Source: Pseudomonas fluorescens
GTDB taxonomy: Bacteria > Pseudomonadota > Gammaproteobacteria > Pseudomonadales > Pseudomonadaceae
Direction: 5' to 3'
NCBI RefSeq assembly: GCF_000730425.1
Contig: NZ_CP008896.1
Span: 3,038,001-3,102,000, forward strand
DNA length: 64,000 bases
In this document: positions 32,792 through 59,088 of the stretch, piece by piece
How the letters are laid out: the number at the start of each line of letters is the position of its first letter
Position numbering within the stretch: the stretch's first letter is position 1
The notes under the pieces: model-generated
What the model was told of the DNA's origin: nothing
Databases searched by the model: none
Seen by the model: only the letters and a program-made list of their open reading frames with translations
Position numbers and translations under genes: made by a program

Positions 32792-32862
32792 GTCGTTGTG
32801 AACAGGCGTCGTTGGTTAATGAAACGACGCGCTTTTCCCTTCATTCGCAAGGAATCATTCCC

Positions 32863-33831: not shown

Positions 33832-33858
33832 CTCCACTCACTTAATCAACTATTAAAG

Positions 33859-33892
33859 CGCCTGGTCAGCTTCTGCTGGCTGGGCGTTTTTT
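33859..33892 (+). terminator. Rho-independent terminator after DUF932 gene
   Basis: CGCCTGGTCAGC, loop TTCT, GCTGGCTGGGCG, then TTTTTT. Confidence 0.85.
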
Positions 33893-33912
33893 ATGCCGCA
33901 CAGGAAAACATC

Positions 33913-42059: not shown

Positions 42060-43112
42060 TCACCTGCCGGGATACATCTGCTCAATCTGCTGATCAAACT
42101 CTCCGCCATCCCCACAGTACTCACGCGGAATGCGTTCAATATCCTCGGCAATCTGCTCGATCACTTCGCGCAGCTCCAATTGCCCGTACCATCGAGCAGG
42201 AATCGCCGTAGCACCATACTGAACACCCAACAGGTGCCCGGCGATCAACCCGGTGCTGTCACTGTCGCCACCGTGATTCACCGCCGTGATCACGCCCTCC
42301 TCGAACGAGCGCGCGGCCAGGGCGCACCACAACCCAATAGCCAACGCCTCTTCGGCGACCCAACCGCCACCGAATTCGCCTATGCGTTGCGGGGTGGGTT
42401 GGTAGCCCTCGTAAAAGAAGAACAGCACGCGCTCGATGAGACTCCGTGTTTCTTCCATACCGGGCATTTGTCCGTAATTGGCCAAGCTTTGAGTGACTGC
42501 GTGCTCCAGGCTGTCTTGCCGATCGACAATGCGCTGGAGAATATCGGCGAACAGCCCAGCCGCCAGGTAGCCCGTAGGGTGCCCGTGGGTCAGGCGCCCT
42601 GACTGGGCAGCGTAGTCAAAGGCATTAGCAAAGAATGCACAGGGCGCAACGCGCATCAAGGCGCCACAACCTTTGCTGTTGTTCTCGGCAACAGCGCCCA
42701 GCCGCGAACTGGCCTTGAGTGCAGCTAGGCAGGTAGTACCAGGGGCGCGGCGAGACCAGAGTTCCGGTTGTTTGATCAGCCACCCGTCCCTGCTGACAGG
42801 CATCGCCATAGGGTAATCCTGGGTCATCAGCCAGCGCAGCAACGCATGATGGATAATGCTGGGAACGTGGCAAATCCCTCGCGAACTGCCGCGCACATAA
42901 GCCCGCAGCAAGCCTTCGGCCGTGAAGAGCATCATCTGCGTGTCGTCGGTGATGGCACCAGTGATACCGTAAGCCGGGGCAAAATAGATGATTCCCTGTG
43001 GACCGAACTTAGCTTCGATTGCAGGCCACTCGAGAAACTCCACCGGGGCGCCCAACGCATCGCCAACAGCACCGCCCAGCAGACAGCCTTTGATCCGTTC
43101 AAGTCTGTTCAT
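42060..43112 (-). CDS. ADP-ribosylglycohydrolase (DraG-like)
   Basis: A 350-residue hydrolase that removes ADP-ribose from proteins or nucleic acids. Metal-binding motifs of the family are present: GAVGDALGAPVEF, ITDDTQMMLF and NHGGDSDSTGLIAGHLLG. It is the second gene after the 89-residue membrane protein, overlapping it by four bases, and is divergent from a WYL regulator. In an island of this type it might reverse ADP-ribosylation by a toxin or phage protein; the target is not visible from sequence. Confidence 0.9.
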   Translation of the reverse strand: MNRLERIKGCLLGGAVGDALGAPVEFLEWPAIEAKFGPQGIIYFAPAYGITGAITDDTQMMLFTAEGLLRAYVRGSSRGICHVPSIIHHALLRWLMTQDYPMAMPVSRDGWLIKQPELWSRRAPGTTCLAALKASSRLGAVAENNSKGCGALMRVAPCAFFANAFDYAAQSGRLTHGHPTGYLAAGLFADILQRIVDRQDSLEHAVTQSLANYGQMPGMEETRSLIERVLFFFYEGYQPTPQRIGEFGGGWVAEEALAIGLWCALAARSFEEGVITAVNHGGDSDSTGLIAGHLLGVQYGATAIPARWYGQLELREVIEQIAEDIERIPREYCGDGGEFDQQIEQMYPGR

Positions 43113-43378
43113 GCCTGCTCCCCCGAGACTGCCGGAATCAGCAGCTGAAGCAGCTCCAACTTGCGCCGTAGCTGATCGACATGCGCTTTTTCCGCCCGCA
43201 GAGCCGAACGCAGTTCTTTATTTTCCAGATTGCCAATGTCCGTCCTGCGTGCCGCCCTATGGCCATCCAGCATCATTTGCCATATTTCACGCAACCTCAG
43301 GGTCTGTAGCACCAGCGTCAACAGGATGATGCCCAGCAACATCAATGCACCTGTAGAAACCATGTCCAACGCGTTCAT
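43109..43378 (-). CDS. Membrane-anchored coiled-coil protein, 89 aa
   Basis: Starts MNALDMVSTGALMLLGIILLTLVLQTLRLREIW at ATG 43378 with AAGGAAG before it. One N-terminal membrane helix is followed by a charged coiled coil (LRAEKAHVDQLRRKLELLQ). It overlaps the DraG-like gene start by four bases, so both are translated together. It may tether or assist the hydrolase; no family is recognised. Confidence 0.65.
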   Translation of the reverse strand: MNALDMVSTGALMLLGIILLTLVLQTLRLREIWQMMLDGHRAARRTDIGNLENKELRSALRAEKAHVDQLRRKLELLQLLIPAVSGEQA

Positions 43379-43396
43379 GTCTGCTTCCTTGGTGAG

Positions 43397-43460
43397 TTCG
43401 GGAAATCCCGAAGACAGCGACACGATATGTAGTGTTAAACGACAGGTCTAGAATGTAGAC
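43397..43460. promoter_or_regulatory. Divergent promoter region with two inverted repeats
   Basis: Between the DraG operon and the WYL gene lie TTCGGG-AAAT-CCCGAA (43397-43412, perfect) and GTCTA-GAATG-TAGAC (43446-43460, perfect). Either could be the operator of the WYL regulator; the second is placed where it could block both promoters. The assignment is inference. Confidence 0.5.
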
Positions 43461-43496
43461 TTATACAGGTAAAGTATTCACGCACATGGAGGGGAC

Positions 43497-44372
43497 ATGA
43501 AACGTACGCAATCCATTGAACAGGTTCGCTGGGACCTGGCACTTCGCTATCGTTTGATTGAAACCGTTGCCTGGTGGGAAGGCCGCCTGACCACGGGGCA
43601 CTTGATCCAGAGCTTCGGCATCAGTCGTCAGCAGGCGTCCAAGGACATCAACACCTACATCAACGAACATGCGCCTAAAAACCTTACATATGACAAAAAA
43701 ATAAAGGGCTACGTGCCCAGCAAGACGTTCAAGCCGCTATTCATTGACGACAGTGCCAGCGCGTACCTGCACCTGCTTTATCAGAATAATTCTCGGGCGC
43801 CGTATATCGAGGGTCTGGCCCTAGCCTATGCACACACCAGGGTATTGGAGGTGCCGGATCGCTCGATCAAAGCGGAGATACTTCGACCCTTGCTTAAGGC
43901 CTGCCGTGAACATCTGAGTCTGGACGTTGACTATGTGTCGCTAAACAGTCCGGCCCCGGAGGGCCGCATGATTGCGCCGCACACGCTGATCTATAGTGGT
44001 ATGCGCTGGCACGTTCGGGCGTATTGCGAGAAGAACCGTAAGTACCGTGACTTTGTACTAAGCCGGTTACGGGGGATTCCGGATATTCAGGATGGTGAAA
44101 CAGAAAACGGCATAGATGCCGATGAAGCCTGGAACACCCCGGTTACCGTAATCATCAAGCCAGATGAAGGCCTGACTCCGGCGCAGAAGTTGATCATCCA
44201 GATCGACTTCGGGATGATCGACGGGCAGCTGGAGATCCCGAGCTGCGGGGCGTTGGTGAAATATGTGTTGCAGCGATACCAGATCGATCCTAAACACTTG
44301 GATCCTAAGCCGGAGGCGCAGCAGATCGTGGTGGCGAACCTGAAAGAGCTGAAGCCTTGGTTATATGACTGA
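43497..44372 (+). CDS. WYL-domain transcriptional regulator (BrxR/CapW-like)
   Basis: A 291-residue regulator. The N-terminal winged helix contains TTGHLIQSFGISRQQASKDINTYI. The middle holds a WYL domain (MIAPHTLIYSGMRWHVRAYCEKNRKYRDFVLSRL) and the end a WCX-like dimerisation part (IPSCGALVKYVLQRY). Regulators of this build (BrxR, CapW) repress defence operons and respond to a ligand, perhaps nucleic acid. It is divergent from the DraG operon, with inverted repeats in between, and is the nearest regulator upstream of the 46.3 kb operon. Confidence 0.85.
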   Translation: MKRTQSIEQVRWDLALRYRLIETVAWWEGRLTTGHLIQSFGISRQQASKDINTYINEHAPKNLTYDKKIKGYVPSKTFKPLFIDDSASAYLHLLYQNNSRAPYIEGLALAYAHTRVLEVPDRSIKAEILRPLLKACREHLSLDVDYVSLNSPAPEGRMIAPHTLIYSGMRWHVRAYCEKNRKYRDFVLSRLRGIPDIQDGETENGIDADEAWNTPVTVIIKPDEGLTPAQKLIIQIDFGMIDGQLEIPSCGALVKYVLQRYQIDPKHLDPKPEAQQIVVANLKELKPWLYD

Positions 44373-45575: not shown

Positions 45576-45771
45576 GGTAGGCGTTGTACTCCTCCTCAAA
45601 GATCTGAGCGTACTCGCCGGGCAATTCGCCGGTTGCGTCGTACTGGCGGTATTTAGCTACCTCATCGATGAAGAACAGCGACAGCACCTTGATGCCCTTG
45701 CTGAACAGCATCATCTCTTTCTGAAAATGTGCCTTCACCGCCTCGCGGATTTGGATGCGGCGCATGGCGGC
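45576..45771. repeat. 196-bp direct repeat, copy 1 (fragment of res)
   Basis: Identical base for base to 53306-53501 inside the res gene, in the same orientation. On the minus strand it encodes [19 protein letters not shown] and following residues of Res. Here it is a dead fragment without start or stop of its own, joined to transposon ends on the right. Offset between copies is 7730 bases. Confidence 0.95.
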
Positions 45772-46314: not shown

Positions 46315-47211
46315 TTGCGTGCAGATACCCAAGTCCAAGAGATTTTAGCTAAGTGCGATATCCTCAAGCGTGCAGGGCTATGGCCGTCGGAGCCTACGCT
46401 GCGCCCGCGCGCCTGGCTGATGAATTTCGATGAGCAAGATGCGCACGTGGCCGCATTTCTCTTGGATAAATTCACTTTCTATAACAGAACATTGACAGAT
46501 GCTTTGTTAGTCGCCTCTTACAACTCGATTGGAGACGGCATGCCTAAGGGCCCTTCAGCACCAAGGGGAAACGATCTCGTAGCGGCCCTGGGCTCGGCAA
46601 TCCTTACGCCCGTGAAGGGAGAGCATCCAAACCCTACCGATTCAGGCTATTTGCTTTGCCGTAAGGCACGTCAGCTGCTTCACTTGAATGACAGCTTCAT
46701 CTTGGATACAGATGACGCACTTCAGCACGCCTACGATGGAAAGACTGTTGTTTTCATCGATGATTTCGTTGGCTCAGGCGATCAGTTTTTATCCACATGG
46801 AAGACTGTTGACAAATCAAGTAAGTCATTTGAAAAAGCAAACGCTATCAGTGGTTTCACGGCAATTTATGTGACATTGGTAACAACTGACTTCGGCTTGA
46901 AAAATATAAACAATCAAGCTCCAACAGTTGCAGTATATGCCACTCATGTGCTTGAGCAAAAATCAACCCTTCAGGGTGTTTTTGACTCTAACACGAGCAT
47001 GAGATCGCCAATTCTAAGGTTTTTGTCTAAATACTGCACACGCTTAACGCCCGCTGAACATTATATAGCTACGAACCAGAACTATTTGATGTTCGGGTAT
47101 AAACAGCGGGGACTGATGTTTGGTTTTGAACATTCGATACCCGACGCTACACTACCGATATTCTGGTCGCCGGGGTCGAACAACTGGGAGCCACTAATTG
47201 AGCGAGCTTAA
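46315..47211 (+). CDS. PRTase-fold protein (PRTase-CE-like), gene 1 of candidate defence operon
   Basis: A 298-residue protein with a phosphoribosyltransferase signature, VVFIDDFVGSGDQF at residues 145-158, equal to the PRPP-binding loop (hydrophobic residues, DD, then G-S/T-G). Upstream are ALLVASYNSIGDGMPKG and SAPRGNDLVAALGSAI. It lacks the hood of known salvage PRTases, so a nonmetabolic use of the fold is likely. From memory, a family called PRTase-CE in bacterial conflict systems has this layout and pairs with ORC/CDC6-like ATPases. The start is TTG 46315, with GGAG seven bases before it. It overlaps the next gene by 14 bases. Confidence 0.75.
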   Translation: MRADTQVQEILAKCDILKRAGLWPSEPTLRPRAWLMNFDEQDAHVAAFLLDKFTFYNRTLTDALLVASYNSIGDGMPKGPSAPRGNDLVAALGSAILTPVKGEHPNPTDSGYLLCRKARQLLHLNDSFILDTDDALQHAYDGKTVVFIDDFVGSGDQFLSTWKTVDKSSKSFEKANAISGFTAIYVTLVTTDFGLKNINNQAPTVAVYATHVLEQKSTLQGVFDSNTSMRSPILRFLSKYCTRLTPAEHYIATNQNYLMFGYKQRGLMFGFEHSIPDATLPIFWSPGSNNWEPLIERA

Positions 47212-49069
47212 TCCAAATGCTGTCTTACGGCAGCTATTCGGCGACAACCGAGCTGAGTGGCCTTCTGCTAATTTCAAGGATTTGTTTGTAACACCGACCT
47301 ATCTTGGCAAACTTGAAGTCATGCGTCCATGTTTTCTCGTTGGTGGTCGCGGAACAGGAAAAACCACTGCACTCCAGTCGCTGCGGTACGACTCAATGCT
47401 GGAAAGAATTGAAGGAGAAGGTCAGACCTTCGCTGATCAAGAATATCTTGGCGTTCTTGTTCGTATGAATAAGAATCGTGTCCGAGCGTTCACAGGAAGT
47501 GGTATCAACGAGGAGCGATGGTCAAAGCTTTTTGCCCACTATTTTAATCTCATCGTTTGCAGCGAACTCGTTACTCTCACCTCCTGGCTAGAAGTTAGAC
47601 TGGGCTCAAAATTATCTGAAGAACATCTCAGCACAATATCTAATGAACTTGGCTTGGAGGACTGTGAAACACTGGTCCGACTCAAGAGCACAATAAAAAA
47701 ATCCATATCGTCTCTCCAGTTGCAAGTGAACAACCCGCTCAAAGACATGGGGATAACGCTATCCATGGCAGAGGCCCCACTGCGAACCTTTGCGGAGGTA
47801 TTAAGAGCAGAAGGTTTGCTAGGTGATAGAGTAATTTTTTGCTGTATCGACGAGTATGAAAATCTACTTGATTATCAACAGGCTATACTTAATACATATA
47901 TAAAACATGCGGAGCCGCCCCTTTCCTACAAAATGGGCGTCCGGAAAAATGGACTACGAAATAGACAGACGCTTGATGGCCAAGATTTACTCAGAGTACC
48001 CGACGACTGTCTCGAGATTGAGATTGCGGATGAGGGCTTCGAGTTTTTCGCGAAGGCCGTTGCGGAATTAAGATTAAGGTACGCTCAAAGCGTCGGAGCT
48101 GTAGTCCCTAGCAACCTCCGCGAGTTCTTGCAAGAACTATCTCTATCTGAAGAGGCCGTAGTTCTAGGCGCTGACCGCGTGGCCGCAGCCATTCTGTCCG
48201 AGTTAGACGGTAGTAAAAACATAGAGTTCTTTCAACAAAAGTCGAAGGGCGAACTTTACTTTTTGAAATATTGGCAGGAAAGCGAGGGGGGGTCGTTAAA
48301 AGATCTCGCTCAAGACTGGTACAACAACGAGACTGAATGGAAGACCAGGCTTGGCAACCATGGTTATGCTAGCCTTTTCTGGTTGTCGAAAGGTCGTAAA
48401 GGAGCAAGAATCAGAAAGTACTACTGCGGAGAACGAACCCTTCTTTCGCTAGCAGCCGGAAATATTAGATATTTTCTGGAGCTGATCGATACAGCCATCA
48501 GTTATCAACTGGACGAAGAATCGTCGAAACAGTCGCCTTTAACAATATCCCCGAAATCTCAGACGCTCGCGGCAAGAGAGGTCGGAAAGAGACGACTCAA
48601 TCAACTGGAGGGACTTGCAGACCACGGCGTCCAGCTGAAACGACTTGTTCTCGCAATTGGTAAAGTCTTTTTTGAACTAGCTCGAGCACCAAGTGGAAAG
48701 ACCCCAGAAGTTACATCATTTGTGCTTTCTGGAAGCCCAGCGGAAGCTAGCAGAGTTCATGAGTTACTCCAAGAAGGCGTTGGCCACTTAGCTTTCGAGT
48801 CCGACCCTAGGACTAAGTCCACCAGCAGCTCAGAGCTTCGAGATGATGAATATCGTCTGCACCGGATCTTCAGCGCGTTTTTCGAGATATCCCATCGTAA
48901 GAAAAGGCGAATGACAATTGAGGCATCTACTCTCATAAGCGTGTTAGAAAATCGACCTTCTCGGGCCATCTCTACACTCCTAGATGATAGGCCGCAAACA
49001 TCTGAGGAGGAGCTTCCCGAGCAGCTCGCACTATTCTCCGCGTTCTATGACGACGAGGAATTGAAATGA
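47198..49069 (+). CDS. ORC/CDC6-like AAA ATPase, gene 2 of candidate defence operon
   Basis: A 623-residue P-loop ATPase. Walker A is FLVGGRGTGKTTALQSL (residues 46-62) and Walker B RVIFCCIDEYENLLDY (211-226). The layout fits ORC/CDC6-type AAA proteins: a short N-terminus, LFVTPTYLGKLEVMRPCFLVGG leading into the P-loop, an ATPase core and a long helical C-terminus. It may sense invader DNA or replication and pass the signal to the PRTase-like protein. Overlaps both neighbours (14 and 4 bases), so the operon is translationally coupled. Low GC relative to flanking metabolic genes. Confidence 0.78.
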   Translation: MSELNPNAVLRQLFGDNRAEWPSANFKDLFVTPTYLGKLEVMRPCFLVGGRGTGKTTALQSLRYDSMLERIEGEGQTFADQEYLGVLVRMNKNRVRAFTGSGINEERWSKLFAHYFNLIVCSELVTLTSWLEVRLGSKLSEEHLSTISNELGLEDCETLVRLKSTIKKSISSLQLQVNNPLKDMGITLSMAEAPLRTFAEVLRAEGLLGDRVIFCCIDEYENLLDYQQAILNTYIKHAEPPLSYKMGVRKNGLRNRQTLDGQDLLRVPDDCLEIEIADEGFEFFAKAVAELRLRYAQSVGAVVPSNLREFLQELSLSEEAVVLGADRVAAAILSELDGSKNIEFFQQKSKGELYFLKYWQESEGGSLKDLAQDWYNNETEWKTRLGNHGYASLFWLSKGRKGARIRKYYCGERTLLSLAAGNIRYFLELIDTAISYQLDEESSKQSPLTISPKSQTLAAREVGKRRLNQLEGLADHGVQLKRLVLAIGKVFFELARAPSGKTPEVTSFVLSGSPAEASRVHELLQEGVGHLAFESDPRTKSTSSSELRDDEYRLHRIFSAFFEISHRKKRRMTIEASTLISVLENRPSRAISTLLDDRPQTSEEELPEQLALFSAFYDDEELK

Positions 49070-50004
49070 TTACGATGCCTACGCCGTCGCTAAATACCAA
49101 GCGCTTCCAGAACATAACCATAGCAGATATAAATGCTGACGAAGTAATAATATCGGCTGCTGACTCAGCTGAGTACAGAGACAGACTTCCTTTGTGGGAA
49201 CATATCCACACCTCCGATCCAAAGCGCATTATTTTTATCAAAAACATCGACAAAGAAAGCATCCTAGTTACTCATGACGGAACGGAAAAAACCGTATCCC
49301 TCAGGGACGAAGATGCGATCAATGATATCTTTATCGCGAAGCAGATATTGATAGACGTTACCGGGCTGTCGCACAACATCTGGGCTCCGCTTCTGAAGAG
49401 TGCATACTCGCAGAAGATTCGGACACGCATTTTATACGCCGAGCCCGAATCCTACACGCCTCACCCGAGCCCAGCCTCATCCGCCATTTTCGATTTAAGC
49501 GTTACATTTGAAGGGTTGTCGCCTTTGCCCGGTTTCGTGCAGTTAGCGGGGCCGGAAGACGAAGAAAAATGCTTGTTCATCGCGATGCTAGGCTTTGAGG
49601 GCAATCGACCCGAACATCTTGCATCCCAGTTGGATCCGACCCCAAAAGTGATCCCAATTGTGGGGGTCCCCGGCTTTCAGCTCGAATATCCGGCGTTCAC
49701 GGTCGGCTGCAATCGAATGTTTCTGGACGAGTATCGAGCTCATTCGGAGGTCAGATACGCTCGTGCAAGCTGCCCTTTTGAGGCATTTAATGCATTGAAC
49801 AAGATCCGTAGAGATTACCCTGACCACTATATATACTTGGCCCTCGTCGGCACCAAACCACACGCAATCGGCTCCATACTTTTCGCTATAAAATACGCTG
49901 AGACGACGGAAATCATGTTCGACTACCCGGTTAAGAAAAGCGGACGAACCTCCGGCGTGGGGATCGTCCATATTTATGATTTTGAGGACTTCCATGCCTA
50001 TTGA
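49066..50004 (+). CDS. Unrecognised protein, gene 3 of candidate defence operon
   Basis: A 312-residue protein without a family I can name. It starts ATG 49066, overlapping the ATPase stop (ATGA). Visible are ITIADINADEVIISAADSAEYR, RDEDAINDIFIAKQILIDVTGL, FIAMLGFEGNRPEHLASQ, a central YPAFTVGCNRMFLDEYRAH and a C-terminal YIYLALVGTKPHAIGSILFA. No membrane helix or signal peptide is evident. The alternating short beta-like segments suggest a soluble alpha/beta protein. Its fixed place between the ATPase and the methyltransferase suggests a partner or effector role. Confidence 0.7.
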   Translation: MITMPTPSLNTKRFQNITIADINADEVIISAADSAEYRDRLPLWEHIHTSDPKRIIFIKNIDKESILVTHDGTEKTVSLRDEDAINDIFIAKQILIDVTGLSHNIWAPLLKSAYSQKIRTRILYAEPESYTPHPSPASSAIFDLSVTFEGLSPLPGFVQLAGPEDEEKCLFIAMLGFEGNRPEHLASQLDPTPKVIPIVGVPGFQLEYPAFTVGCNRMFLDEYRAHSEVRYARASCPFEAFNALNKIRRDYPDHYIYLALVGTKPHAIGSILFAIKYAETTEIMFDYPVKKSGRTSGVGIVHIYDFEDFHAY

Positions 50005-51055
50005 TATGGATAGGTACTACACCCCAGAGAACGTCGCGATGAGCGCTTTGGAGCGGGCGAATTTTCCCTTTTTACCCAAAACATGCGCGGACTCGACCTG
50101 TGGGTCAGGTCGGCTACTCGATGCCGCGAATGCCGTTTTCGGACCAGTCCAATCCTTCGGAATAGACCGAGACGTCGATGCTATATCCCAGCTGCGCTTA
50201 AGAAGGCCTGAATGGCATTTGTCGGTAGGCGACTTGCTCCATAATGACCCCGTTGATGTCCTATCGAAGCGAAATGCCGTCGACCTGCTAGTACTCAACC
50301 CTCCATTCAGCCACGGAAAAAAGAAGTCTGTCGACATCTGCTTCGCCGGCAAAGAGATGAAGGGAAGCATCGCCATGGCTCATTTGCTAAGAAGCTTTGA
50401 GCTGTTTCAGCCGAGTCTGGGCGCAATTGTGATAGCGCCGGAGTCTCTGCTCTATTCCGAAACAGACCATTTTGCTCGCCAGACATTGGAGGAGAATTAT
50501 CAGTTTCAAAAAATTGCTGAGCTGAAGCGATGTACATTTCACGGCGCAAGGGTACAGGCTTCAGTCGTTCAAATTTCTCCAGGCCGTCATCGTTCTTCAC
50601 TGCAAGAGATGAAGCCTAGCAGCGTCGTCGTCCCCGCGACGCTCTTACGCGGAAGTCTTCCAGTTCATTTGAACGTTAGTGATCCGGCTGGAGTACCCTT
50701 TCTACATTCCACAGATATACGAAAGGTAGTAATTGCTGGCTCAACGGTAGATATTTCTAAGACCTCGACTGTCGCTAAAGGCAGAACGAAAGGTTGGGTG
50801 ATTTTGATTCCTAGAGTCGGGCTTCCCGACATGCAGTTCGTAAAAGCAATCAACCTCGAAACAACTGTCCAGCTTTCTGATTGTGTTATTGCTCTGGAGT
50901 TTCAAACTAAGGCGAATGCTATGAAAGCAGAGCGTCGAATCCACTCGCGGTGGATGGATTTCAGAAATATTTACCGAGGAACAGGCGCACGCTATGTGAC
51001 CATCTCAAGATTAAGTATGTGGTTGCCCTCACTTGCTATAGCTGCAGCTACATAG
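49994..51055 (+). CDS. N6-adenine DNA methyltransferase (gamma class), gene 4 of candidate defence operon
   Basis: A 353-residue methyltransferase. Motif I is CADSTCGSGRLLDA (residues 31-44) and motif IV NPPF (102-105), preceded by DLLVL. The TPEN near the N-terminus is motif X, so the order X-I-IV fits the gamma class (M.TaqI-like). The C-terminal 150 residues may recognise target DNA. ATG 49994 is chosen because GAGGA precedes it by five bases; the frame is open to 49976. It overlaps gene 3 by 11 bases. No restriction nuclease of usual kind adjoins it on this strand; it may protect host DNA from the operon's own effector. Confidence 0.85.
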   Translation: MPIDMDRYYTPENVAMSALERANFPFLPKTCADSTCGSGRLLDAANAVFGPVQSFGIDRDVDAISQLRLRRPEWHLSVGDLLHNDPVDVLSKRNAVDLLVLNPPFSHGKKKSVDICFAGKEMKGSIAMAHLLRSFELFQPSLGAIVIAPESLLYSETDHFARQTLEENYQFQKIAELKRCTFHGARVQASVVQISPGRHRSSLQEMKPSSVVVPATLLRGSLPVHLNVSDPAGVPFLHSTDIRKVVIAGSTVDISKTSTVAKGRTKGWVILIPRVGLPDMQFVKAINLETTVQLSDCVIALEFQTKANAMKAERRIHSRWMDFRNIYRGTGARYVTISRLSMWLPSLAIAAAT

Positions 51056-51620
51056 ACTAGCTCCGCTTACATGCAGTGCATTTCGTATCGATGCCCAGCC
51101 CAGGCGTGCCCTGTCTAGCGGGGTATGCCGAGATAAGGGGAAAATTCACTCATTTGGTCTGCCGCTGCATCTACTTATCGGAATTGAAAATTCCAGAGAC
51201 CACGCGACAGGCGTGCAAGGAAAGGTCGAGGTTTGCGCCCATCCATCAGTGAAACCTAGAGTGGTTTACTATAAAACTTTTATAGATCATCCGCTTGCGA
51301 CGCAAATGTCCTAATTCTACCTTATCTCGGCATCACCTCTAATTGTCCATTCCGCCTGAACCCGCAATACCAGCAGGCCGGGGCTTCCTCGGCCTGCTCT
51401 TTCGTCCAATCGCCGCATATTATCAATCGACTTTTCGCACACCCGATAGCCCCAGAGGTCACACACAGTGTGAGCCTTATGCCCCAACTTTTGGGGCATA
51501 TAGGTAGTCGCCTTGGCGCTCTCGCGTTAGGGCACTAACGTCAAAATACTGCAGGATGTTGCCGGGCAGGCTGTGGCGATTTACGAAGGAACTTAAGCAG
51601 ATTGGCTTCAGTTGCTTTCA
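51056..51620. other. Intergenic region at converging gene ends
   Basis: About 560 bases between methyltransferase and res stops. AGCAGGCC pairs with GGCCTGCT near 51380-51407 and could end transcription. Open frames here (for example 51317-51499 minus) have no recognisable features. Confidence 0.4.
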
Positions 51621-54600
51621 TTATTTCACCAACTCCATCAACTTCCCATACCCATCCACCACGTCGTACCTCACCTGCTCTGAGGTGATCTTGGCGAAAA
51701 ACTTGCGTGCACAGGCGATTTTTGAAGCTTCGATAGCACGTAGGTCCAGCGTGGACATGGAGCCCTTGGTCTCGGCGATGAAGTAGATGTGCTTCACGTT
51801 GCCTTCCTGAAAGGCGATGGCCCAGTCGGGGTTGTAATTGCCGACCGGGGTCGGGATGAAGAAGCTCTTCGGCAGTTTGGCGTAGACCACCACCTCTGTG
51901 CTTGCGTCCAGCTCTTCGACGAATTTACGCTCGATGCTGGAGTCGGTGAACACATAGTCGTAGACGTGGTGCTTGGCTTCGAAAGCCTTGCTGAAATCAT
52001 CCTTGGGCTTCTCGGCAGTAAAGATGTCCGAACTATGGGTTTCACCCACCGGATCGTAGGCAATGTGCTCGACGATGGCCGTGGCCTTCTGCTCGTTGAT
52101 CAGCATAGCGGCCTTGGCGATGAAGTCTTCCGGGTTGGTTTTGTACTGGCTGAACACCGCCACGTTGATGTCTTTGAGAATGCTGGCAATGGTGCTGCGT
52201 GTTAGCTGGGTGTCCTCGGCCAGATTGCCGATCAGATCGTATTTCACCGCCGAATGAACGGAGTGGTTGTACTTTTCGGTCGAGCTTTCGGCGATCTTAA
52301 AGGCTGTGCCGCTCTTCATATCGTCGAAGCTGGCATTCTCCAGCTGGCTGCCGCGCTCGATGATGTACTGCATCGGTTTAACCCGCAGCTCAGTATCCAG
52401 GGCCGCCACGCACTTGCCCACCAGCTCATCGGTTTCAAAGTGAACCGTGTAAGCAGCCTTGCGATTGATCTTGTTCCACAGTGCCTGAAATTCCTTCTTC
52501 TCGAAGTTCGAGTTCAGGGGGTTGATCTTGGCCTTGCGGTCATCGCCAATCTCAGGCATTTGCGCCGCACTGAAGACGCTATCGATCAGCTGGAACACCT
52601 GGGCTGCATAGGGCTGCAGTTCGGCCGGTAGCTCTGCCAACTGCTCTTGTTTTTTGGCCTCGTGGTAGGTCAAGGTGATCTGATCGTTGTCGTCGGTGTA
52701 GTCGTTTTTCAGCAGGTATTTGTAAATCTGCTTGGCCAGTTGCGCAGAGACCTCAACGTCGCCAGTTAGAGTTTGTAAAACTTTACCTTTGAAATAATTC
52801 TCGTTGGCCTCACGTGGCCGGGCCGACAACGATTCGCTGATATCCCTCTGCAGTGCGCCAACGAAGTCCTTGTAGCTTTCGCTGGCCACCACCGTCAGCT
52901 CATTGATTTGGTGCACGGTGGCCGGGTCATCCATACGGTCACCCAGCTGGTTGACGGCCAGGCGCATGCCACGACCCACCTCTTGGCGCCGGGAAATGCT
53001 GTTATCGCTGTGCTTTAAGGTGCAAATAACGAAGACGTTGGGGTTATCCCAGCCTTCGCGCAAAGCCGAGTGGGAGAAGATAAATCGCACCGGCTCGTCG
53101 AGCGACAGCAGGCGTTCTTTGTCCTTGAGGATCAGGTCGTAGGCATCCACGTCGTCGGTCTCAGTAGCTTTTTTCCCCACTGAGGGATCGACTAGTCGCT
53201 TGCTTTTCTTGTCGATAGAGAAGTAGCCATTATGGGTCTGGCGAGCCTGAATACCCTTGAGGTAGCGGTTGTAGGGTGTGTCTTCCAGCGTCATCACGTC
53301 GGTGAGGTAGGCGTTGTACTCCTCCTCAAAGATCTGAGCGTACTCGCCGGGCAATTCGCCGGTTGCGTCGTACTGGCGGTATTTAGCTACCTCATCGATG
53401 AAGAACAGCGACAGCACCTTGATGCCCTTGCTGAACAGCATCATCTCTTTCTGAAAATGTGCCTTCACCGCCTCGCGGATTTGGATGCGGCGCATGGCGG
53501 CCTCATCCACGTTGCCCACGACCTCCCCGGCAACTAGCTCCACACCGTTGGTAAAGCTCAGCGTGTCGATACGGGCGTCGATATCGGCAACCACGTAATC
53601 TTTGTACTGATCCAGCCCACCGGACAGGTCGTACAGATTGTCGTTGCGGCCGAGTTTGCGCATCACGCGCTTGATACCACTGCTCTGCTTGATCTCGATC
53701 TCCACCCGCGCCACAGGCGATTTGGTCGAGACTTCGATGTCCTGCAGGAACAAATAAGCATTGGTCCCGGTCAGGCCTTTGACCGTAATACCGCGCACGC
53801 TGATCTTTTTAACCAGTTTCTGGTTGTAAGCATCCAGCGCGTCAAGGCGGTGGATTTTGTTGTACTCGGTTTTGTGCGTAGCCGAGTAGCGCACAATCAT
53901 CAGCGGATTGAACTCGCTAAAGGACGCCAGCGTTTTGGCCCCTTCCATCTTCTGCGGCTCATCGAGAAGGAGAATTGGTCGGTTAGCCTTGATCACATCG
54001 ATAGGACGGCGCGACTGAAAGTCATCCAGCTCCTCATAGATACGGCGCTGATCGGCACCACGGGCGGCGAACGCCTGCACGTTGATGACCATTACGTTGA
54101 TGCCGGCATCCGAAGAAAAGCTCTCCAAGTTGTGCAATTGCTTGGAGTTGTAAATGAAGAAACGCGCCTTCTTACCGTAGCTCTCCAGAAAGTGCTCAGC
54201 AGTGATTTGCAGCGACTTGTACACACCCTCGCGGATGGCAATACTCGGCACCACGACGATAAACTTGCTCCAGCCAAAGCGTTTGTTCAGCTCGAACATG
54301 CTCTTGATGTAGCAATAGGTCTTACCAGTGCCCGTCTCCATCTCAACATCGAGGTTGATGGTGCAACCCGTATGTTTGTCGCTAGCCAGCGACGCCGATA
54401 ACGGTAGGTTCTGCCGGCGTTGTACGCCTTGAATGTTTCCCAGCAACTGCGCCACGTTCAACGCTAGCTCTGCATTCTTGAAGCCAGCCTCAGTAGGCTC
54501 AATCGTCTTCGCACCGAGCAGGTCGATCTGTTGCGGTGCCGCCGGTGCGAAAGGCTTAGCTCCAGGGTCGACGCGATAACTCACGCCCGAGGATTTTGGC

Positions 54601-54674
54601 TGGCCGGCAAAGCAGTCGGCAAAGGCGTCTACCGCATGGGTCTGGTAGGGCTGGACTTTAAACTTCAGTTTCAT
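51621..54674 (-). CDS. res: Type III restriction enzyme Res subunit
   Basis: A 1017-residue helicase-nuclease that cuts DNA with the Mod subunit. Walker A is in [21 protein letters not shown] (residues 113-132), the DExx box is DEPQKME, the motif VI region is [19 protein letters not shown], and the C-terminal nuclease has NPDWAIAF and FIAETKG (about 948-971). The length is normal. ATG 54674 with AGGAA upstream is preferred to the longer frame. It is the last gene of the minus-strand cluster; 196 bp of it are duplicated at 45576-45771. Four 11-bp repeats precede it. Confidence 0.92.
53306..53501. repeat. 196-bp direct repeat, copy 2 (inside res)
   Basis: The intact parent copy of the repeat at 45576-45771, part of the res coding sequence. 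Confidence 0.95.
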
Positions 54675-54754
54675 GCGTAATTCCTGACTGACCCAAGGGT
54701 ATTGCAAGTAAGAATCAAGGCGTCTAGCCCTTTAGGATCAGCTACTTACCGTTA

Positions 54755-54809
54755 ATTTATTCTGCATTTATCCTGCAACTCAGGATGATTTATTCTGCAT
54801 TTATTCTGC
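54755..54809. repeat. Four 11-bp repeats between Schlafen-type gene and res
   Basis: On the minus strand: GCAGAATAAAT twice in tandem, an 11-base spacer, GCAGGATAAAT, GCAGAATAAAT. The first unit contains the TAA stop of the upstream gene. All units have the same phase. Confidence 0.8.
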
Positions 54810-56459
54810 AAGCACCCAGACTGGCGCCTTGCGCGAGCCGTAATTTTTAATGCGCTCGGCACGTCGCAAGCTGGTGAGTAAACCACCGATCTTGGTTTCC
54901 TTCTGCGCATCATCTAGAGCATCGCTGAGCTTGTTGCTGAGCAACTGGTCGATATCCTTGCGGGTAGCAGAACCAAATTTGGTCAACAAATCGAGAATCA
55001 TCTGCTTGTAGAAAGCGTCATCCTGTCCACGGGTACGGATGTAGTCGGCTTTACTGGCTGTTGCTTTGGCGACCGTAGCAGAAACGTACAGATTGGGCCG
55101 TTTGCCCTCGATAAGCCCAGCCTTGCGCAAGTGTTTCACCATCGCGGCATCCAGCGGCAGTCTTTTCTGCACACGGTCTAACGCCAGGATGTCGACAAGG
55201 GCAAGGTCGGTCTTCTGGATCAGCAGCCGACTGTAAGCGGGATCTACAACGCGGCCATGGATAGTCATCCTCACCGCCTGTGGCTCGGATAAGTCATAGT
55301 CCGGCATGGGGAAGAAACGCCGGGCCTGACCAAGGTGCATCTCATAAATGCCATAACCCATGGTGTCGATCATGTTCAGTTCGGCCATGGCTTGAGCTAA
55401 GAACGGGTTACGGTAACGTCTTGGGGTTTTGGTTCCGGCAATGTAGTCCGCTGGCTGTCCCTCAAAGAACGATCCGTCGTTTTCCAGCACCAGCCGATCA
55501 GGAAACTCCGTCACAATGATTCGGCCATTACGACTGTAGTCCTGGTGCGCAATGCAGTTGTGCAGCGCTTCCAGCACAATTTTCTGATCGTACTTGGCCA
55601 GTTCAATAGCCAGCAACTGGTCTTCCGGCAGGATGCGAATCTGGATGTTACGAATTTTCTGATACAGGCCGCTGCTATTGAGCAGAAACGGTAACCCGAA
55701 GTGCTCATAAGCACGCTCTGAGCCTTCCAGCTTCCAGGTCATCTGGGCGGGATGCGGCGACAACAAGTGCGCCGACTCCAATTTGCCAAGCAATAGAAGC
55801 GTTGTACGGGTGATCTGGCCGTCGCGGGTCAGTTTGGCGCGGTCGAGAAAAGTGGCAACTGACCAGTTCATGACGTCATCCGCCGCAAAGCGGTTGGCAT
55901 ACTTTTTCGCGAAAGACTCTCGCGCCCTAGACAGCGCGGCAACGTCTAGATGCGCCAAGGTAGCACCAGCGACTACTTGCGCCGACCAGTCGGCCGCGCC
56001 TACCTGGCGGCGAATCTCATCAAGCTTGTCTAAACCCAGATGGGTCAGGCTTTCACCAGCACGTGCGTAGTAATGCCCCTTCCACGCAATCGGCATCCCC
56101 AACGGAGCAGCCGGAATCTCGAACAGCAATACGCGCCCTTCGGTAAGTAGCAGTTCGTGAATATTACGCAGGGTGATGCTCGGCTCGGTGGCAGCAGAAA
56201 TCTGCATTTTCAGGCTGTGCAGATTCTCCGCCTTAGGCCGGTAATCGCTGCCCACAGCCTTACGACTGTGGTTATCCACACCGAATACCAGCCAGGCACG
56301 TTCTTGATTACGCAAATTGGCTTCGTTGGCCAGGGCAGAGAAGTACTTGCCTATGGCGTCGGTCGAGTAATCGTTCCCGGCGCGCTTGAACTCCACTACC
56401 TCGTTTTCCCAACACTCAATCAAGGAGTCCAGTAGTGCCTGCATGGCTTGAGCATCCAT
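54801..56459 (-). CDS. Schlafen/AlbA_2-domain ATP-binding protein
   Basis: A 552-residue protein. The N-terminal AlbA_2 (Schlafen-type) domain is seen in ENEVVEFKRAGNDYSTDAIGKYFSALANEANLRNQERAWLVFGVDN. A middle part with VLEALHNCIAHQDYSRNGRIIVTEF and RLVLENDGSFFEG resembles the ATP-binding domain typical of this group, and winged-helix elements follow. It lies between mod and res with nine bases to mod, so it belongs to the R-M cluster. Some relatives cleave tRNA or regulate transcription; which applies here is unknown. Confidence 0.85.
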   Translation of the reverse strand: MDAQAMQALLDSLIECWENEVVEFKRAGNDYSTDAIGKYFSALANEANLRNQERAWLVFGVDNHSRKAVGSDYRPKAENLHSLKMQISAATEPSITLRNIHELLLTEGRVLLFEIPAAPLGMPIAWKGHYYARAGESLTHLGLDKLDEIRRQVGAADWSAQVVAGATLAHLDVAALSRARESFAKKYANRFAADDVMNWSVATFLDRAKLTRDGQITRTTLLLLGKLESAHLLSPHPAQMTWKLEGSERAYEHFGLPFLLNSSGLYQKIRNIQIRILPEDQLLAIELAKYDQKIVLEALHNCIAHQDYSRNGRIIVTEFPDRLVLENDGSFFEGQPADYIAGTKTPRRYRNPFLAQAMAELNMIDTMGYGIYEMHLGQARRFFPMPDYDLSEPQAVRMTIHGRVVDPAYSRLLIQKTDLALVDILALDRVQKRLPLDAAMVKHLRKAGLIEGKRPNLYVSATVAKATASKADYIRTRGQDDAFYKQMILDLLTKFGSATRKDIDQLLSNKLSDALDDAQKETKIGGLLTSLRRAERIKNYGSRKAPVWVLAE

Positions 56460-56468
56460 ATCAGCCCC

Positions 56469-58364
56469 TTAAAGCGTCTTAATTTCGGTAGCTGGCGAAA
56501 GCAGCTTGAACACCTGCTCGACGTTGATTTTCACGCTATCACTGGCGAAGCCGGCGTCGCGAAACACCACACGTAGCGGCTTATGTCCTGCGAGCTGTTT
56601 GACGAACTCTTCGTCGATACCTATATCGAAGCAGGCGGCCAGTGCATTACCGTCAACGAAGAACACGGTCTTGCCGGCGATAACTTGCTGGTTGATCGGC
56701 AGGGCCAGATCCACGCCCCAGTCTAGCAGCACCTGAAACAGCAAATCTTCGGAGGTGCGGTCTTCGCGGACATTGTCGATTTGATCGGAGAGCAGATCCT
56801 GGCTCACTGCATCCGGCGTGTAGTACACCTCTTTCATATTGGAGGTGTCGATTTTCAGCACCCGAAAGCCAATGTCGAGCTGCTCAATACCTTCCATGCC
56901 AGAGCACTCAACCTTGATCTTTTTGCCTGCTCGCCGAATTCTTTCCTTACTTATTTGAGCAATAGTTCCATAACCGGCTTTAAAGGCCTCGCTACCCGCA
57001 TCGCACGCCTCAGGAATTTGAACTGAAATATGCCGTCTAGTGCCTTGATCCTCCGCATTTAACTCCATTACCGCGTGCGCTGTCGTAGAGGATCCAGAAA
57101 AGAAATCAAGGTAAACTTCATCTTTATTGGCCGATGAAATAGATATCATTCGCTTCAAAATAGATATTGGTTTTGGGCTATCAAAAAACGCTTTACCATC
57201 AAACAGCTTTTTCAAACTCTGCCTTGCTTCTTGGTTATGACTAACCTCTTCATGAAACCAAATTGTATTTGGGCGCAAACCCGCTTGAACCTCGGACAAA
57301 AAAGTCTTAAGCCGAGGCACCCCCTCCCCCCCTTTACCAAACCATATCCGATTATCCAGTACTAAATCATTGAATTTTTCTTTATTAACACTCCAATACC
57401 TACCATCTGGCGGACTACACTCACGACCGCTCGGCGTTTTAATTACATAATTGAGTTTGTCACTTCCCGACTTGGCCGACAACACAACGGAAGTCCATGG
57501 GCCACGCGGATCACTATCTGGATTCGTATAACCGTCATTATCGGCATCTGTTCTTGGCAGCAGGTTTAACCTCCAACCAGATAAGTCATTTGAAATTGAG
57601 TTCTTCGCATAACAGAGAATATTATCATGCATCGTAGAAAAGTAAGCCGCATCATTAGAGCGAGAAAATTTCTTCTGCCACACAATATGCGCTACGAAAT
57701 TAGCCTCACCAAAAATCTCATCGCAAACCTTTCTAAGGTTAGCAATTTCACCATCATCTAAAGATATAAATATAACCCCATCATGTCGCAATAAATTTCT
57801 CGCTAGCTTTAGCCGAGAGTAAATCATACTCACCCAGGCAGAGTGAAATCGTCCATTGGACTCAGAGTTCGCAACTAACGGACTCCGTCTTTCGTCTTTC
57901 TGATTTGACTTCCTGAGATATGATTCCGCGTCCTCAGAAAAATCATCGTCATAAATGAAGTCATTTCCAGTATTGTAAGGAGGATCTATATAAATCATCT
58001 TGACTTTATTGAGATAAACCTCTTGGAGTAATTTTAGCGCATCGAGATTATCCCCCTCGACAAAGAGATTTTGCGTGGTATCAAAGTCAACGCTCTCTTC
58101 TCTACACGGGCGCAATGTCTTGGCAATCGGTGCATTCGCTGCCAGCAGCGCCTCACGCTTCCCCGGCCAATTCAGCTGATAGCGCTCCTGCGGTCCCTCA
58201 ACAATGGAAGAAGACAGCTCCTGACGCAGCAGGTCGAAGTCGACGGCCTTCTTCAAATCGCCCTGGGCATCCAACGCTTCGGTGATGCAATTGGGGAACA
58301 GCTCAGCCAGCTTGTCGATATTGGCTTCGGTCAGGTTTTTAGAGTGCATCTTCAGCGTGTCCAT
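56469..58364 (-). CDS. mod: Type III DNA methyltransferase Mod subunit
   Basis: A 631-residue beta-class N6-adenine methyltransferase that recognises the target for both modification and restriction. DPPYNTGNDF (motif IV, residues 127-136) comes before the cofactor motif I FFSGSSTTAHAV, with the target recognition domain between. AGGACG precedes ATG 58364. The middle of the gene (about 56930-58060) is by eye much richer in A and T than its ends and than the neighbouring genes, pointing to replacement of the recognition domain by recombination. Confidence 0.92.
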   Translation of the reverse strand: MDTLKMHSKNLTEANIDKLAELFPNCITEALDAQGDLKKAVDFDLLRQELSSSIVEGPQERYQLNWPGKREALLAANAPIAKTLRPCREESVDFDTTQNLFVEGDNLDALKLLQEVYLNKVKMIYIDPPYNTGNDFIYDDDFSEDAESYLRKSNQKDERRSPLVANSESNGRFHSAWVSMIYSRLKLARNLLRHDGVIFISLDDGEIANLRKVCDEIFGEANFVAHIVWQKKFSRSNDAAYFSTMHDNILCYAKNSISNDLSGWRLNLLPRTDADNDGYTNPDSDPRGPWTSVVLSAKSGSDKLNYVIKTPSGRECSPPDGRYWSVNKEKFNDLVLDNRIWFGKGGEGVPRLKTFLSEVQAGLRPNTIWFHEEVSHNQEARQSLKKLFDGKAFFDSPKPISILKRMISISSANKDEVYLDFFSGSSTTAHAVMELNAEDQGTRRHISVQIPEACDAGSEAFKAGYGTIAQISKERIRRAGKKIKVECSGMEGIEQLDIGFRVLKIDTSNMKEVYYTPDAVSQDLLSDQIDNVREDRTSEDLLFQVLLDWGVDLALPINQQVIAGKTVFFVDGNALAACFDIGIDEEFVKQLAGHKPLRVVFRDAGFASDSVKINVEQVFKLLSPATEIKTL

Positions 58365-58407
58365 GGGACGTCCTGTAATTCTTGAATTCTTGGGTACGAA
58401 CTGGCGC

Positions 58408-59088
58408 TTACGCGCTCAACTGATCAATTTGGGCATTCAGCTCCCGCAATTGAGCGTTGAGCTCTACTTTGCGGTTGAACTGTATTTCTTTGTGCAAGCG
58501 GGCCTCCAGCTTGCGCTGCTCGCCATGCAGTCTGCGCAGCTGGGTCAATCGCTGCAGCTGTTCTGGCAGGCTTTCTCTGGGCCTCGCTGGATGCGGCAGC
58601 ACGCTGCGCAGCAGTTGTTCGTAAAGGCCATACAGATCTAGCGCCACCGGCAAGGGCTGACGCTCGGCATCAGCCGCCAACCAAGCTCCGGCGAAGTAGC
58701 CATCGATGACCCGCTTGCTGGCATCGGCTTCGCTGGGACGTTTAAAGGTCGCCACCATGCGGGTGCGCTGCTTATGGTGCAACTGAAAGATGATCGGCAG
58801 TGGGATAGCGCGGTCGATGGCGCGCAGTACTTCTTCATCGAATTCGGCGGTTTTCAGTGCGATGTCGAAGATCTGAATTTCTACCACACCGCCCCGCGCC
58901 GGCAGATTGATGGTTTCCGGGGCCAGCTTGTACTGCCAGGTGATTTGCTCGACCTGGGCAACGAATTTATCGCGCAGTGTCGAGCTGACAAAACCACGCT
59001 CGTAGATTTTGCTCTTCGCCACCACGCGGCCAACCTTGGCCTGCGGCGGAAAACTAAACAGTGCAGGCGTAACTGAAGCCTGGCTCAT
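58408..59088 (-). CDS. DUF4391 domain protein
   Basis: A 226-residue protein of the DUF4391 family, which is found beside helicases and type III methyltransferases. It reads ALFSFPPQAKVGRVVAKSKIYE, ITWQYKLAPETINLPARGGVVEIQIFDIALK and a coiled coil at the end (LEARLHKEIQFNRKVELNAQLRELNAQI). It overlaps the helicase stop by four bases. Probably a structural subunit; no activity is known to me. Confidence 0.85.
   Translation of the reverse strand: MSQASVTPALFSFPPQAKVGRVVAKSKIYERGFVSSTLRDKFVAQVEQITWQYKLAPETINLPARGGVVEIQIFDIALKTAEFDEEVLRAIDRAIPLPIIFQLHHKQRTRMVATFKRPSEADASKRVIDGYFAGAWLAADAERQPLPVALDLYGLYEQLLRSVLPHPARPRESLPEQLQRLTQLRRLHGEQRKLEARLHKEIQFNRKVELNAQLRELNAQIDQLSA

What the first reader, a model, noticed from the sequence alone, without database searches (positions are those of the whole stretch)
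46315..51055. Four-gene overlapping operon: PRTase-fold protein, ORC/CDC6-like ATPase, unknown protein, N6-adenine methyltransferase
The four genes overlap in series (14, 4 and 11 bases), so they act as one unit. Directly seen are the PRPP-loop motif VVFIDDFVGSGDQF, Walker A GGRGTGKTT with IDEYEN, and NPPF with a CGSGRLLDA motif. I remember PRTase-CE and ORC/CDC6-like families being named together in comparative work on bacterial conflict systems, but I know of no tested system with this third gene and methyltransferase. Inference: the ATPase senses foreign DNA, the PRTase-like protein and gene 3 act, and the methyltransferase marks self. It sits between an ADP-ribosylglycohydrolase/WYL pair and a type III R-M cluster.
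Basis: partly seen in the sequence, partly recalled or inferred. Interest (0 to 1): 0.87.

Follow-up and report, generated by a model that had tools for sequence, protein, structure and literature searches.

The report
Methylase-linked CARF–PRTase bacterial immune operon
Four overlapping genes form a mobile unit, found in several bacterial phyla, that looks like an untested immune system: a DNA methylase, an ATPase paired with a nucleotide-sensor-like protein, and a swappable enzyme that probably attacks nucleotides.

Summary
In detail: four genes at 46315-51055 overlap by 14, 4 and about 11 bases. Gene 1 is PRTase-CE (Pfam E 4e-47; predicted fold matches phosphoribosyltransferases). Gene 2 is an ORC-CDC6-like ATPase (E 1e-119). 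Gene 4 is an N6-adenine DNA methyltransferase. Gene 3 is not unknown: it matches the PADLOC CARF6 family (E 5e-122), and its predicted fold is nearest to the CARF protein Cam1, with Can2, Csm6 and Card1 also found.

The genes co-occur: all four in 34 of 41 loci from a scan of 84,980 genomes, and their divergences track each other (Mantel r 0.90-0.94). In 369 sampled genomes the same 7 carry the ATPase domain and an adjacent CARF; an eighth, weak CARF hit lacks the ATPase.

PRTase and methylase are exchangeable. Other loci carry a phosphoesterase, an HD domain or a kinase instead of PRTase, and methylases of three other families. One clade adds a dUTPase.

Best reading: a mobile defence module in which the methylase marks self, ATPase plus CARF form the trigger, and PRTase is a nucleotide-directed effector also found beside retron-type genes. 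Function is inferred; nothing was tested. My capped searches showed no test in print, but key papers were not held.

The parts
46315..47211 (+). Gene 1, PRTase-CE: phosphoribosyltransferase-fold protein, proposed effector; PRPP-loop DDFVGSGDQ at 46759-46785
   Evidence: Pfam PF24390 E 4.2e-47; PADLOC retron PRTase_III-A E 1e-28; AF2 pLDDT 94.9; Foldseek top hits uracil/orotate PRTases; D150, G155 and Q157 in 50/50, S or T at 154 in 50/50 aligned sequences
47198..49069 (+). Gene 2, ORC-CDC6-like AAA+ ATPase; Walker A with in-loop Arg GGRGTGKTT at 47342-47368, DEYEN Walker B
   Evidence: Pfam PF24389 E 1.1e-119; P-loop found in 49 of 53 sequences, with Arg in 45 and Lys in 4 at the in-loop position; no match in the other 4, some of which are partial
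49066..50004 (+). Gene 3, CARF6-family protein, two Rossmann-like halves; D97xT99 signature at 49354-49374 and GTK at 49849-49857
   Evidence: PADLOC PDLC01913 E 5.3e-122; 42 of 42 scanned members of the alignment, window included, match CARF6 models; AF2 pLDDT 91.4; Foldseek best hit Cam1 CARF E 2.8e-4, 18 of the 50 listed rows are CARF proteins; no Pfam hit
49994..51055 (+). Gene 4, gamma-class N6-adenine DNA methyltransferase with a conserved C-terminal domain; NPPF at 50297-50308
   Evidence: Pfam N6_Mtase E 3.7e-4, just below cut-off; profile hit to EcoR124II M E 3e-17 and BseCI E 1.8e-14; NPP invariant in 44 of 44 aligned sequences

Best explanation
A mobile, modular conflict (probably anti-phage or anti-plasmid) system. 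Shown by sequence and comparison: four co-inherited genes; ATPase plus CARF is the constant core in the sampled genomes; PRTase and DNA methylase are each exchangeable for proteins of other families; it occurs on plasmids and in phage or prophage records as well as chromosomes. Inferred: the methylase marks resident DNA, so that infection or unmethylated foreign DNA shifts the state of the ORC/CDC6-like ATPase. The CARF protein binds a nucleotide-type ligand and gates the ATPase. The assembly then releases or activates the PRTase, which damages the nucleotide pool, for example by pyrophosphorolysis of nucleotides to free base and PRPP or by consuming PRPP, arresting the cell or the invader.
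For: Co-occurrence: all four in 34 of 41 loci. Co-divergence: Mantel r 0.90-0.94, maximum of 500 permutations 0.292. Core: in 369 class genomes, the 7 whose ATPase match covers much of the domain are the 7 with a CARF match other than the weak one; ATPase lies next to CARF at 16 of 17 non-own CARF hits from class and genus samples. Swapped effectors: calcineurin phosphoesterase, HD-CE, kinase-ATPase fusions, ParA-like fusion. Other methylase families: PF01555, C5 and D12. PRTase-CE also sits beside a reverse transcriptase and beside NADAR genes, and one clade carries dUTPase_2. Mobile carriage. Literature, passages seen: some PRTases are called probable effectors in retrons, and a DprA-PRTase pair protects against T7 and lambda (PMC9122126).
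Against: No experiment of any kind. No nuclease or cyclase domain was found in the four genes. The K/R of the classical CARF signature is His in the window and in 34 of 50 aligned sequences (Arg in 5), so ligand binding is uncertain. The Foldseek CARF match is weak: only 2 hits at E <= 0.001, TM by query 0.26-0.38 for the CARF rows listed, and 32 of the 50 listed rows are not CARF proteins. Flank scan: no strong defence enrichment; the displayed families show 5 dUTPase, a few integrases, 2 ResIII and 1 BrxL among 119 ORFs. L114 has the core but no methylase was seen. L057, a divergent ATPase, has no PRTase found upstream. Effector-swap examples are single cases except the kinase fusions (three).
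Confidence: 0.5

Rival explanations
1. Second-messenger reading: the PRTase makes a PRPP-derived nucleotide signal, the CARF protein is its receptor, and the ATPase (with CARF) is the executioner.
For: No cyclase was found in the operon, and the PRTase is the only obvious nucleotide-making enzyme. Candidate pocket residues D97 and T/S99, and GTK 262-264, are kept. The literature has proposed that PRTases make a nucleotide in Ter systems and names CARF as a nucleotide recogniser (PMC5512222, passages).
Against: CARF and ATPase persist in loci with no PRTase found, where a phosphoesterase, HD domain or kinase stands instead; these look like effectors, not synthases of one shared ligand.
Confidence: 0.15
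2. The CARF protein answers cyclic oligonucleotides made elsewhere in the cell (CBASS or type III CRISPR), so the operon is a remote accessory of those systems.
For: The genome holds one SMODS nucleotidyltransferase over cut-off.
Against: That gene is about 0.7 Mb away. The only Cas10 palm match is below the cut-off. The four genes co-diverge as a self-contained unit and are carried together on plasmids and in phage or viral contigs.
Confidence: 0.08
3. BREX-like exclusion: ATPase, CARF and methylase together block replication of unmethylated DNA, and the PRTase modifies DNA bases or nucleotides instead of poisoning the pool.
For: BREX pairs an ORC/Cdc6-clade ATPase (BrxC) with a methylase (PMC12839542 passages); one abstract in a search listing says no BREX protein appears to contain a nuclease (PMC9122589), though a title in another listing calls PglZ a nuclease (PMC11974810). 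PRTase-CE next to NADAR, a base de-modifying domain family (function recalled), in L124-L126.
Against: No PglZ match in the genome. Gene 2 has no BrxC hit in PADLOC at E <= 1. PRTase is replaceable by phosphoesterase, HD or kinase.
Confidence: 0.14
4. Addiction or maintenance module of mobile elements: a methylase-dependent toxin rather than a phage defence.
For: Frequent carriage on plasmids typed conjugative (129 of 144 plasmid records with a CARF match, 128 of the 144 from Klebsiella, so not independent) and close to repA in one Serratia and one Klebsiella plasmid inspected.
Against: Also in genome contigs of several phyla. CARF, ATPase and swappable effectors are typical of immune systems, and the same effector family occurs beside a reverse transcriptase.
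Confidence: 0.1

Closest known systems
CARF6 group of CARF proteins (PADLOC models; census paper recalled, not held) and kinase-AAA-CARF fusions (Makarova 2014, PMC4012209)
   Same: Gene 3 and its scanned homologues match CARF6 models. The 2014 paper describes Zn ribbon, kinase, AAA+ with an Arg finger within the P-loop, CARF and wHTH in one protein (passages); the window P-loop GGRGTGKTT has an Arg, and L114, L122 and L123 have kinase-ATPase fusions next to CARF6-type genes.
   Different: The window has separate genes, a PRTase instead of the kinase, and a linked methylase.
Pfam ORC-CDC6-like, PRTase-CE and HD-CE families (PF24389, PF24390, PF24391)
   Same: Genes 1 and 2 are clear members; HD-CE turns up with ATPase and CARF in L118.
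   Different: The Pfam names say nothing of CARF or methylase; the source paper was not held.
Retron type III-A PRTase effector
   Same: PADLOC PRTase_III-A E 1e-28 for gene 1; PRTase-CE beside a reverse transcriptase in L127.
   Different: No reverse transcriptase among the operon's genes; an ATPase-CARF pair stands in its place.
BREX
   Same: ORC/Cdc6-clade ATPase with a DNA methylase.
   Different: No PglZ, no BrxC match; CARF and PRTase do not appear among the BREX parts in the passages read.
MADS (methylation-associated defence system)
   Same: Gene 4 matches mad2 over part of its length (E 1.5e-10), gene 2 mad8 (E 7.5e-4), the L122 kinase mad6 (E 1e-11).
   Different: NCBIfam MAD2 model 11.6 bits against a cut-off of 720; the operon has four genes, MADS eight (recalled).

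Membership tests
PRTase-CE (PF24390) | Profile above gathering score over the whole domain | tested here: met
   161.6 bits against 27, positions 2-253 of 253
PRTase superfamily (type I fold) | PRTase fold and acidic PRPP loop | tested here: met
   Foldseek: 17 hits at E <= 0.001, all PRTases. D149 49/50, D150 50/50, S/T154 and G155 50/50, but Q157 where PRPP loops usually have Thr (recalled)
PRTase superfamily (type I fold) | PRPP-dependent catalysis | not testable with these tools
   needs assay
ORC-CDC6-like (PF24389) | Profile above gathering score | tested here: met
   401.3 bits against 27
CARF superfamily | CARF-type Rossmann fold | tested here: met
   CARF6 profiles; Foldseek best hits Cam1, then Can2, Csm6, Card1, Csa3 mixed with other alpha/beta folds; weak E-values
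CARF superfamily | [DN]X[ST]XXX[RK] after strand 4 (as worded in PMC4012209) | tested here: inconclusive
   D and T/S kept (49/50, 50/50); last position His in 34/50 and Arg in 5/50; a separate GTK is kept (G 46, T 49, K or R 50 of 50)
CARF superfamily | Binding of cyclic oligonucleotide | not testable with these tools
   needs binding assay
N6-adenine DNA methyltransferase | Motif I and NPPF, homology to solved enzymes | tested here: met
   EcoR124II M E 3e-17; G33, G35, N98, P99 and P100 in 44/44; the single sequence is just under Pfam cut-offs
Type III CRISPR or CBASS | Linked Cas10 or CD-NTase | tested here: not met
   None among the window ORFs that were scanned (not every ORF of the window); SMODS gene about 0.7 Mb away; Cas10 below cut-off
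BREX | PglZ and BrxC | tested here: not met
   No PglZ match in the genome; no BrxC hit for gene 2
Restriction-modification | Cognate endonuclease in the unit | tested here: not met
   No nuclease family matched by the four genes; the adjacent type III R-M has its own Mod and Res. Whether Res accompanies the operon elsewhere was not checked locus by locus; ResIII was hit by 2 of 119 flank ORFs
Retron III-A | Reverse transcriptase with the PRTase | tested here: not met
   No RT among the operon's genes; ncRNA not searched
MADS | MAD2 equivalog score | tested here: not met
   11.6 against 720 bits
Anti-phage defence system | Protection on phage challenge | not tested
   bench only

The most novel reading that the evidence does not exclude
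A CRISPR- and CBASS-independent class of nucleotide-gated immunity. An ORC/CDC6-like ATPase and a CARF sensor form a universal trigger core that is plugged into any of several DNA methylases (self mark) and any of several effectors. In the PRTase branch, PRPP chemistry links signal and killing: the PRTase (in one clade with a dUTPase) either makes the CARF ligand or strips bases from nucleotides.
Probability: 0.25. Interest if true: 0.85.

Novelty: new variant of a known kind. Interest (0 to 1): 0.64.

Why it matters
CARF proteins are known mainly as receptors for cyclic oligonucleotides in type III CRISPR systems; here a CARF family is tied to an ATPase with no cyclase found at hand. PRTase effectors are reported in retrons and a DprA pair, but their mode of action is described as unknown (PMC9122126, passage). 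This operon is compact, occurs in several phyla, on conjugative Klebsiella plasmids and in phage or prophage contigs, and comes with natural swaps of effector and methylase. That makes two open questions directly testable: what a CARF senses without a cyclase, and what a defence PRTase does.

Tried and rejected
Rejected: gene 3 as a truly unknown protein (Pfam and NCBIfam gave nothing useful, PADLOC did). A CRISPR or CBASS accessory. A BREX member. A flavodoxin-like hint for gene 1 and a PII-uridylyltransferase hint for gene 3 (far below cut-off). Sequence-only PDB search for genes 1-3 gave no meaningful relatives. A defence-island test by flank scan was inconclusive: 119 flanking ORFs from 30 loci against 119 ORFs from 20 arbitrary regions. 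dUTPase (5), integrases (Integrase_1 3, Phage_integrase 2, rve 2), ResIII (2) and BrxL (1) are shown only for the case set, AAA_21 (2) for both; but only the top 25 of about 120 families are displayed, taxa are not matched, and one control ORF of 120 was left out. G392 counted as a CARF hit is probably chance (stop inside, no ATPase). I hoped to place the operon on an empty site; the search with Res gene DNA found one relative at 70 percent over most of the query and I went no further. The literature search used all 10 searches; the lists shown were capped (for example 20 of 148, 25 of 103, 20 of 73, 8 of 5,589), none of the listed titles describes this four-gene unit, and the CARF census of 2020, a 2020 J Bacteriol paper and a 2015 nucleotide-systems paper are not held.

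Rows dropped: L001, L003, L012 and L013 (same loci as window, L009 and L017) and L008 (near-copy of L009) were left out of the reference list and of the 50-row alignments. L004, L031, L034, L038, L040 and L051 (incomplete or doubtful ends) were left out of the Mantel test.
Full report
WHAT IS THERE. The four ORFs are present, co-directional and overlapping as described. Gene 1 (46315-47211, TTG start) is PRTase-CE (PF24390, 161.6 bits). Gene 2 (47198-49069) is ORC-CDC6-like (PF24389, 401.3 bits). Gene 3 (49066-50004) has no Pfam match but matches the PADLOC CARF6 model PDLC01913 over its whole length (E 5.3e-122). Gene 4 (49994-51055; start also possible at 49976 or 50006) is just below the Pfam cut-offs alone, but a seven-member profile finds EcoR124II M (3e-17), BseCI (1.8e-14) and TaqI (4.5e-8). 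The genome (6.06 Mb, one contig) has one full ATPase match of this family and one 20-bit P-loop match under the cut-off. The nearest ATPase relative among the loci is in Halopseudomonas aestusnigri (78 percent).

FOLDS. AlphaFold2 single-chain models from 42- and 44-row alignments are confident (CARF pLDDT 91.4; PRTase 94.9). Foldseek puts the PRTase with uracil and orotate PRTases (17 hits at E <= 0.001, all PRTases). It puts gene 3 first with the CARF protein Cam1 (E 2.8e-4). Among the 50 rows listed, 18 are CARF proteins (Cam1, Can2, Csm6, Card1, Csa3 and the cOA-activated nuclease 6sce); the other 32 are periplasmic binding proteins and other alpha/beta folds, so the CARF call rests on profile and fold together. 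Conserved positions among 50 aligned sequences: D97 49, T or S at 99 50, position 103 His 34 and Arg 5, T263 49, K or R at 264 50, Y124 50, P127 50. In the PRTase: D150, G155 and Q157 50 of 50, S or T at 154 50 of 50. In the methylase: NPP 44 of 44, and the C-terminal half (mean pairwise identity 27 percent) is nearly as conserved as the catalytic half (29 percent), with R270 V271 G272, H234 and G325 in 42 to 44 of 44. So it does not look like a freely changing recognition domain.

CO-OCCURRENCE. Anchored on short ATPase motifs (so biased towards close ATPases), a scan of 84,980 species genomes gave 132 pattern matches, 42 relatives and 41 loci. Profiles built here find PRTase in 40 of 41, CARF in 38, this methylase in 34, and all four in 34. 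The seven others: L051, where the contig ends just past a short ATPase frame; L031, with a split ATPase followed by a transposase-like ORF; L057, a divergent ATPase cut by the contig end and without a PRTase found upstream; and L054, L055, L056 and L058, with PRTase, ATPase and CARF but not this methylase. Outside that scan the four genes are together in Paraburkholderia, Moraxella, Diaphorobacter, Serratia and Klebsiella plasmids (L005-L009), an Acinetobacter phage record (L010) and four IMG/VR loci (L014-L017). L011 (Rhizobium plasmid) has the alternative methylase, and both its ATPase and that methylase are split into two frames. The methylase gene may come last, first (L008, L009, L017, L047, L050) or on the other strand (L007, L015), while PRTase-ATPase-CARF keep their order. 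Most junctions lie within about 30 bases; exceptions include L009, L025, L038, L040 and L044. Pairwise distances of the four proteins correlate at r 0.90-0.94 over 41 loci that have all four (not the same 41 as above); the best of 500 permutations is 0.292. The loci come from Pseudomonadota, Planctomycetota, Myxococcota, Bacteroidota, Acidobacteriota, Ignavibacteriota and, for L055 without a methylase seen, Actinomycetota; one Verrucomicrobiota MAG (L052) is so close to a Burkholderiales locus that misbinning is likely. In that tree the places of the long branches L111, L117, L118 and L058 are unsure.

WHICH PARTS ARE CORE. Searches not anchored on the window's exact type used sampled genomes. 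With the CARF profile, 8 of 369 class genomes and 11 of 298 genus genomes match, own included in each. With PF24389 over the same 369 genomes, 49 match at E <= 0.001 and 10 pass the cut-off. Seven of the ten cover much of the domain (own, G433, G342, G316, G467, G504, G452), and these are exactly the class genomes with CARF except the weak G392; the other three match only the first 58 or so positions, around the P-loop. Of 17 non-own CARF hits, 16 have the ATPase adjacent. In these 16: PRTase-CE in 9 (L108-L110, L112, L113, L115-L117, L120); a calcineurin-like phosphoesterase in L111; HD-CE in L118; kinase fused to the ATPase in L114, L122 and L123; a ParA-like domain fused in L119; contig cut in L121. 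A methylase is seen in 13 of 16: the window's kind in 7 (in L110 and L116 1 to 2 kb off on the other strand), PF01555-like in 4 (L108, L115, L122, L123), C5 in L117, D12 in L111. None is seen in L114, and L118 and L121 are cut by contig ends. In the first survey L054, L056, L058 and L011 carry the PF01555 kind next to the PRTase. So ATPase plus CARF is constant, and effector and methylase are replaceable. A methylase is nearly always kept, though from four Pfam families, which is the strongest hint that methylation itself is part of the mechanism.

THE EFFECTOR. PF24390 matches 40 of 369 class genomes at E <= 0.001, mostly weakly; over the cut-off it occurs in 6: own and G433 in this system; G616, G504 and G487 beside a NADAR protein (with HsdM in L124); G642 beside a reverse transcriptase. 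The same effector family thus occurs in at least three defence-like settings. In one clade of the ATPase tree (support 100/100) all ten operons begin with a dUTPase_2-like gene (L006, L010, L035, L036, L038-L040, L042, L052, L053); L051, not in the tree, has one too, and L113, elsewhere in the tree, has one after CARF. The window has none. Replacement of PRTase by phosphoester hydrolases and the added dUTPase point to nucleotides as target. That is inference.

MECHANISM. Shown: composition, conservation, modularity, mobility. Inferred: self-marking by the methylase; ATPase-CARF as trigger; PRTase as effector. The CARF signature is imperfect in its basic residue, no cyclase was found linked, and the one SMODS gene found in the genome is about 0.7 Mb off. 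The ligand could be a linear nucleotide, PRPP or a PRTase product; the last is the bolder reading and is weakened by loci that keep CARF without PRTase.

WHAT IS KNOWN. Pfam already names ORC-CDC6-like, PRTase-CE and HD-CE with consecutive accessions, and PADLOC names CARF6, so the families were recognised before; the reading of CE as conflict element and the origin of CARF6 in a 2020 census are recalled, not read. Passages seen: PMC4012209 (CARF signature; kinase-AAA-CARF fusions with an Arg finger within the P-loop), PMC9122126 (PRTase as probable retron effector of unknown action; DprA-PRTase against T7 and lambda), PMC12548924 (retron III-A PRTase), PMC13092281 (PRTase named in a figure legend, a metallophosphatase needed for defence), PMC12839542 (BrxC as ORC/Cdc6 ATPase), PMC5512222 (PRTase and nucleotide signals), PMC8195603 and PMC7159879 (no PRTase), PMC9503650. 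Among the titles that ten capped searches listed, none describes or tests this four-gene unit. That is no proof of absence, since key papers are not held.

VERDICT. Defence role likely, mechanism open.

Noticed in passing
45576-45771 and 53306-53501: A 196-base perfect direct repeat: a piece of the type III res gene is duplicated upstream of the operon, so the operon lies between a res fragment and the full res gene.
   Followed up: partly
51120-51340: A roughly 220-base element with short inverted ends (GGTATGCCGAGATAAGG / CCTTATCTCGGCATCACC). The five listed plasmid matches of the region all fall within it; 15 of the 18 matching records are Pseudomonas. It looks like a MITE.
   Followed up: no
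51621-62450: Type III Res and Mod with an AlbA_2/HATPase gene between them, followed by DUF4391 and an SNF2 helicase with PADLOC match HKD+Snf2.
   Followed up: no
42060-44372: ADP-ribosylglycohydrolase divergent from a WYL-domain regulator next to the operon.
   Followed up: no
L124, L125, L126: PRTase-CE beside NADAR-domain proteins, in L124 with an HsdM gene: a different arrangement of the same effector.
   Followed up: partly
L006 2360-3025; L113 7024-7710; ten loci of one ATPase clade, and L051: dUTPase_2-like gene added to the operon, apparently gained at least twice.
   Followed up: partly
L044 11829-15529: Between CARF and the methylase lies a second, weakly ORC-CDC6-like/nSTAND3 protein with a zinc ribbon and an ORF without Pfam match.
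   Followed up: no
G000:C1:3813460-3813945: A SMODS nucleotidyltransferase elsewhere in the genome.
   Followed up: no
32752-34917: DUF932 and YqaJ recombinase genes, as in integrative elements.
   Followed up: no
L012 5168-7110: In an E. coli plasmid record from a conjugation assay the ATPase homologue is annotated as frameshifted.
   Followed up: no
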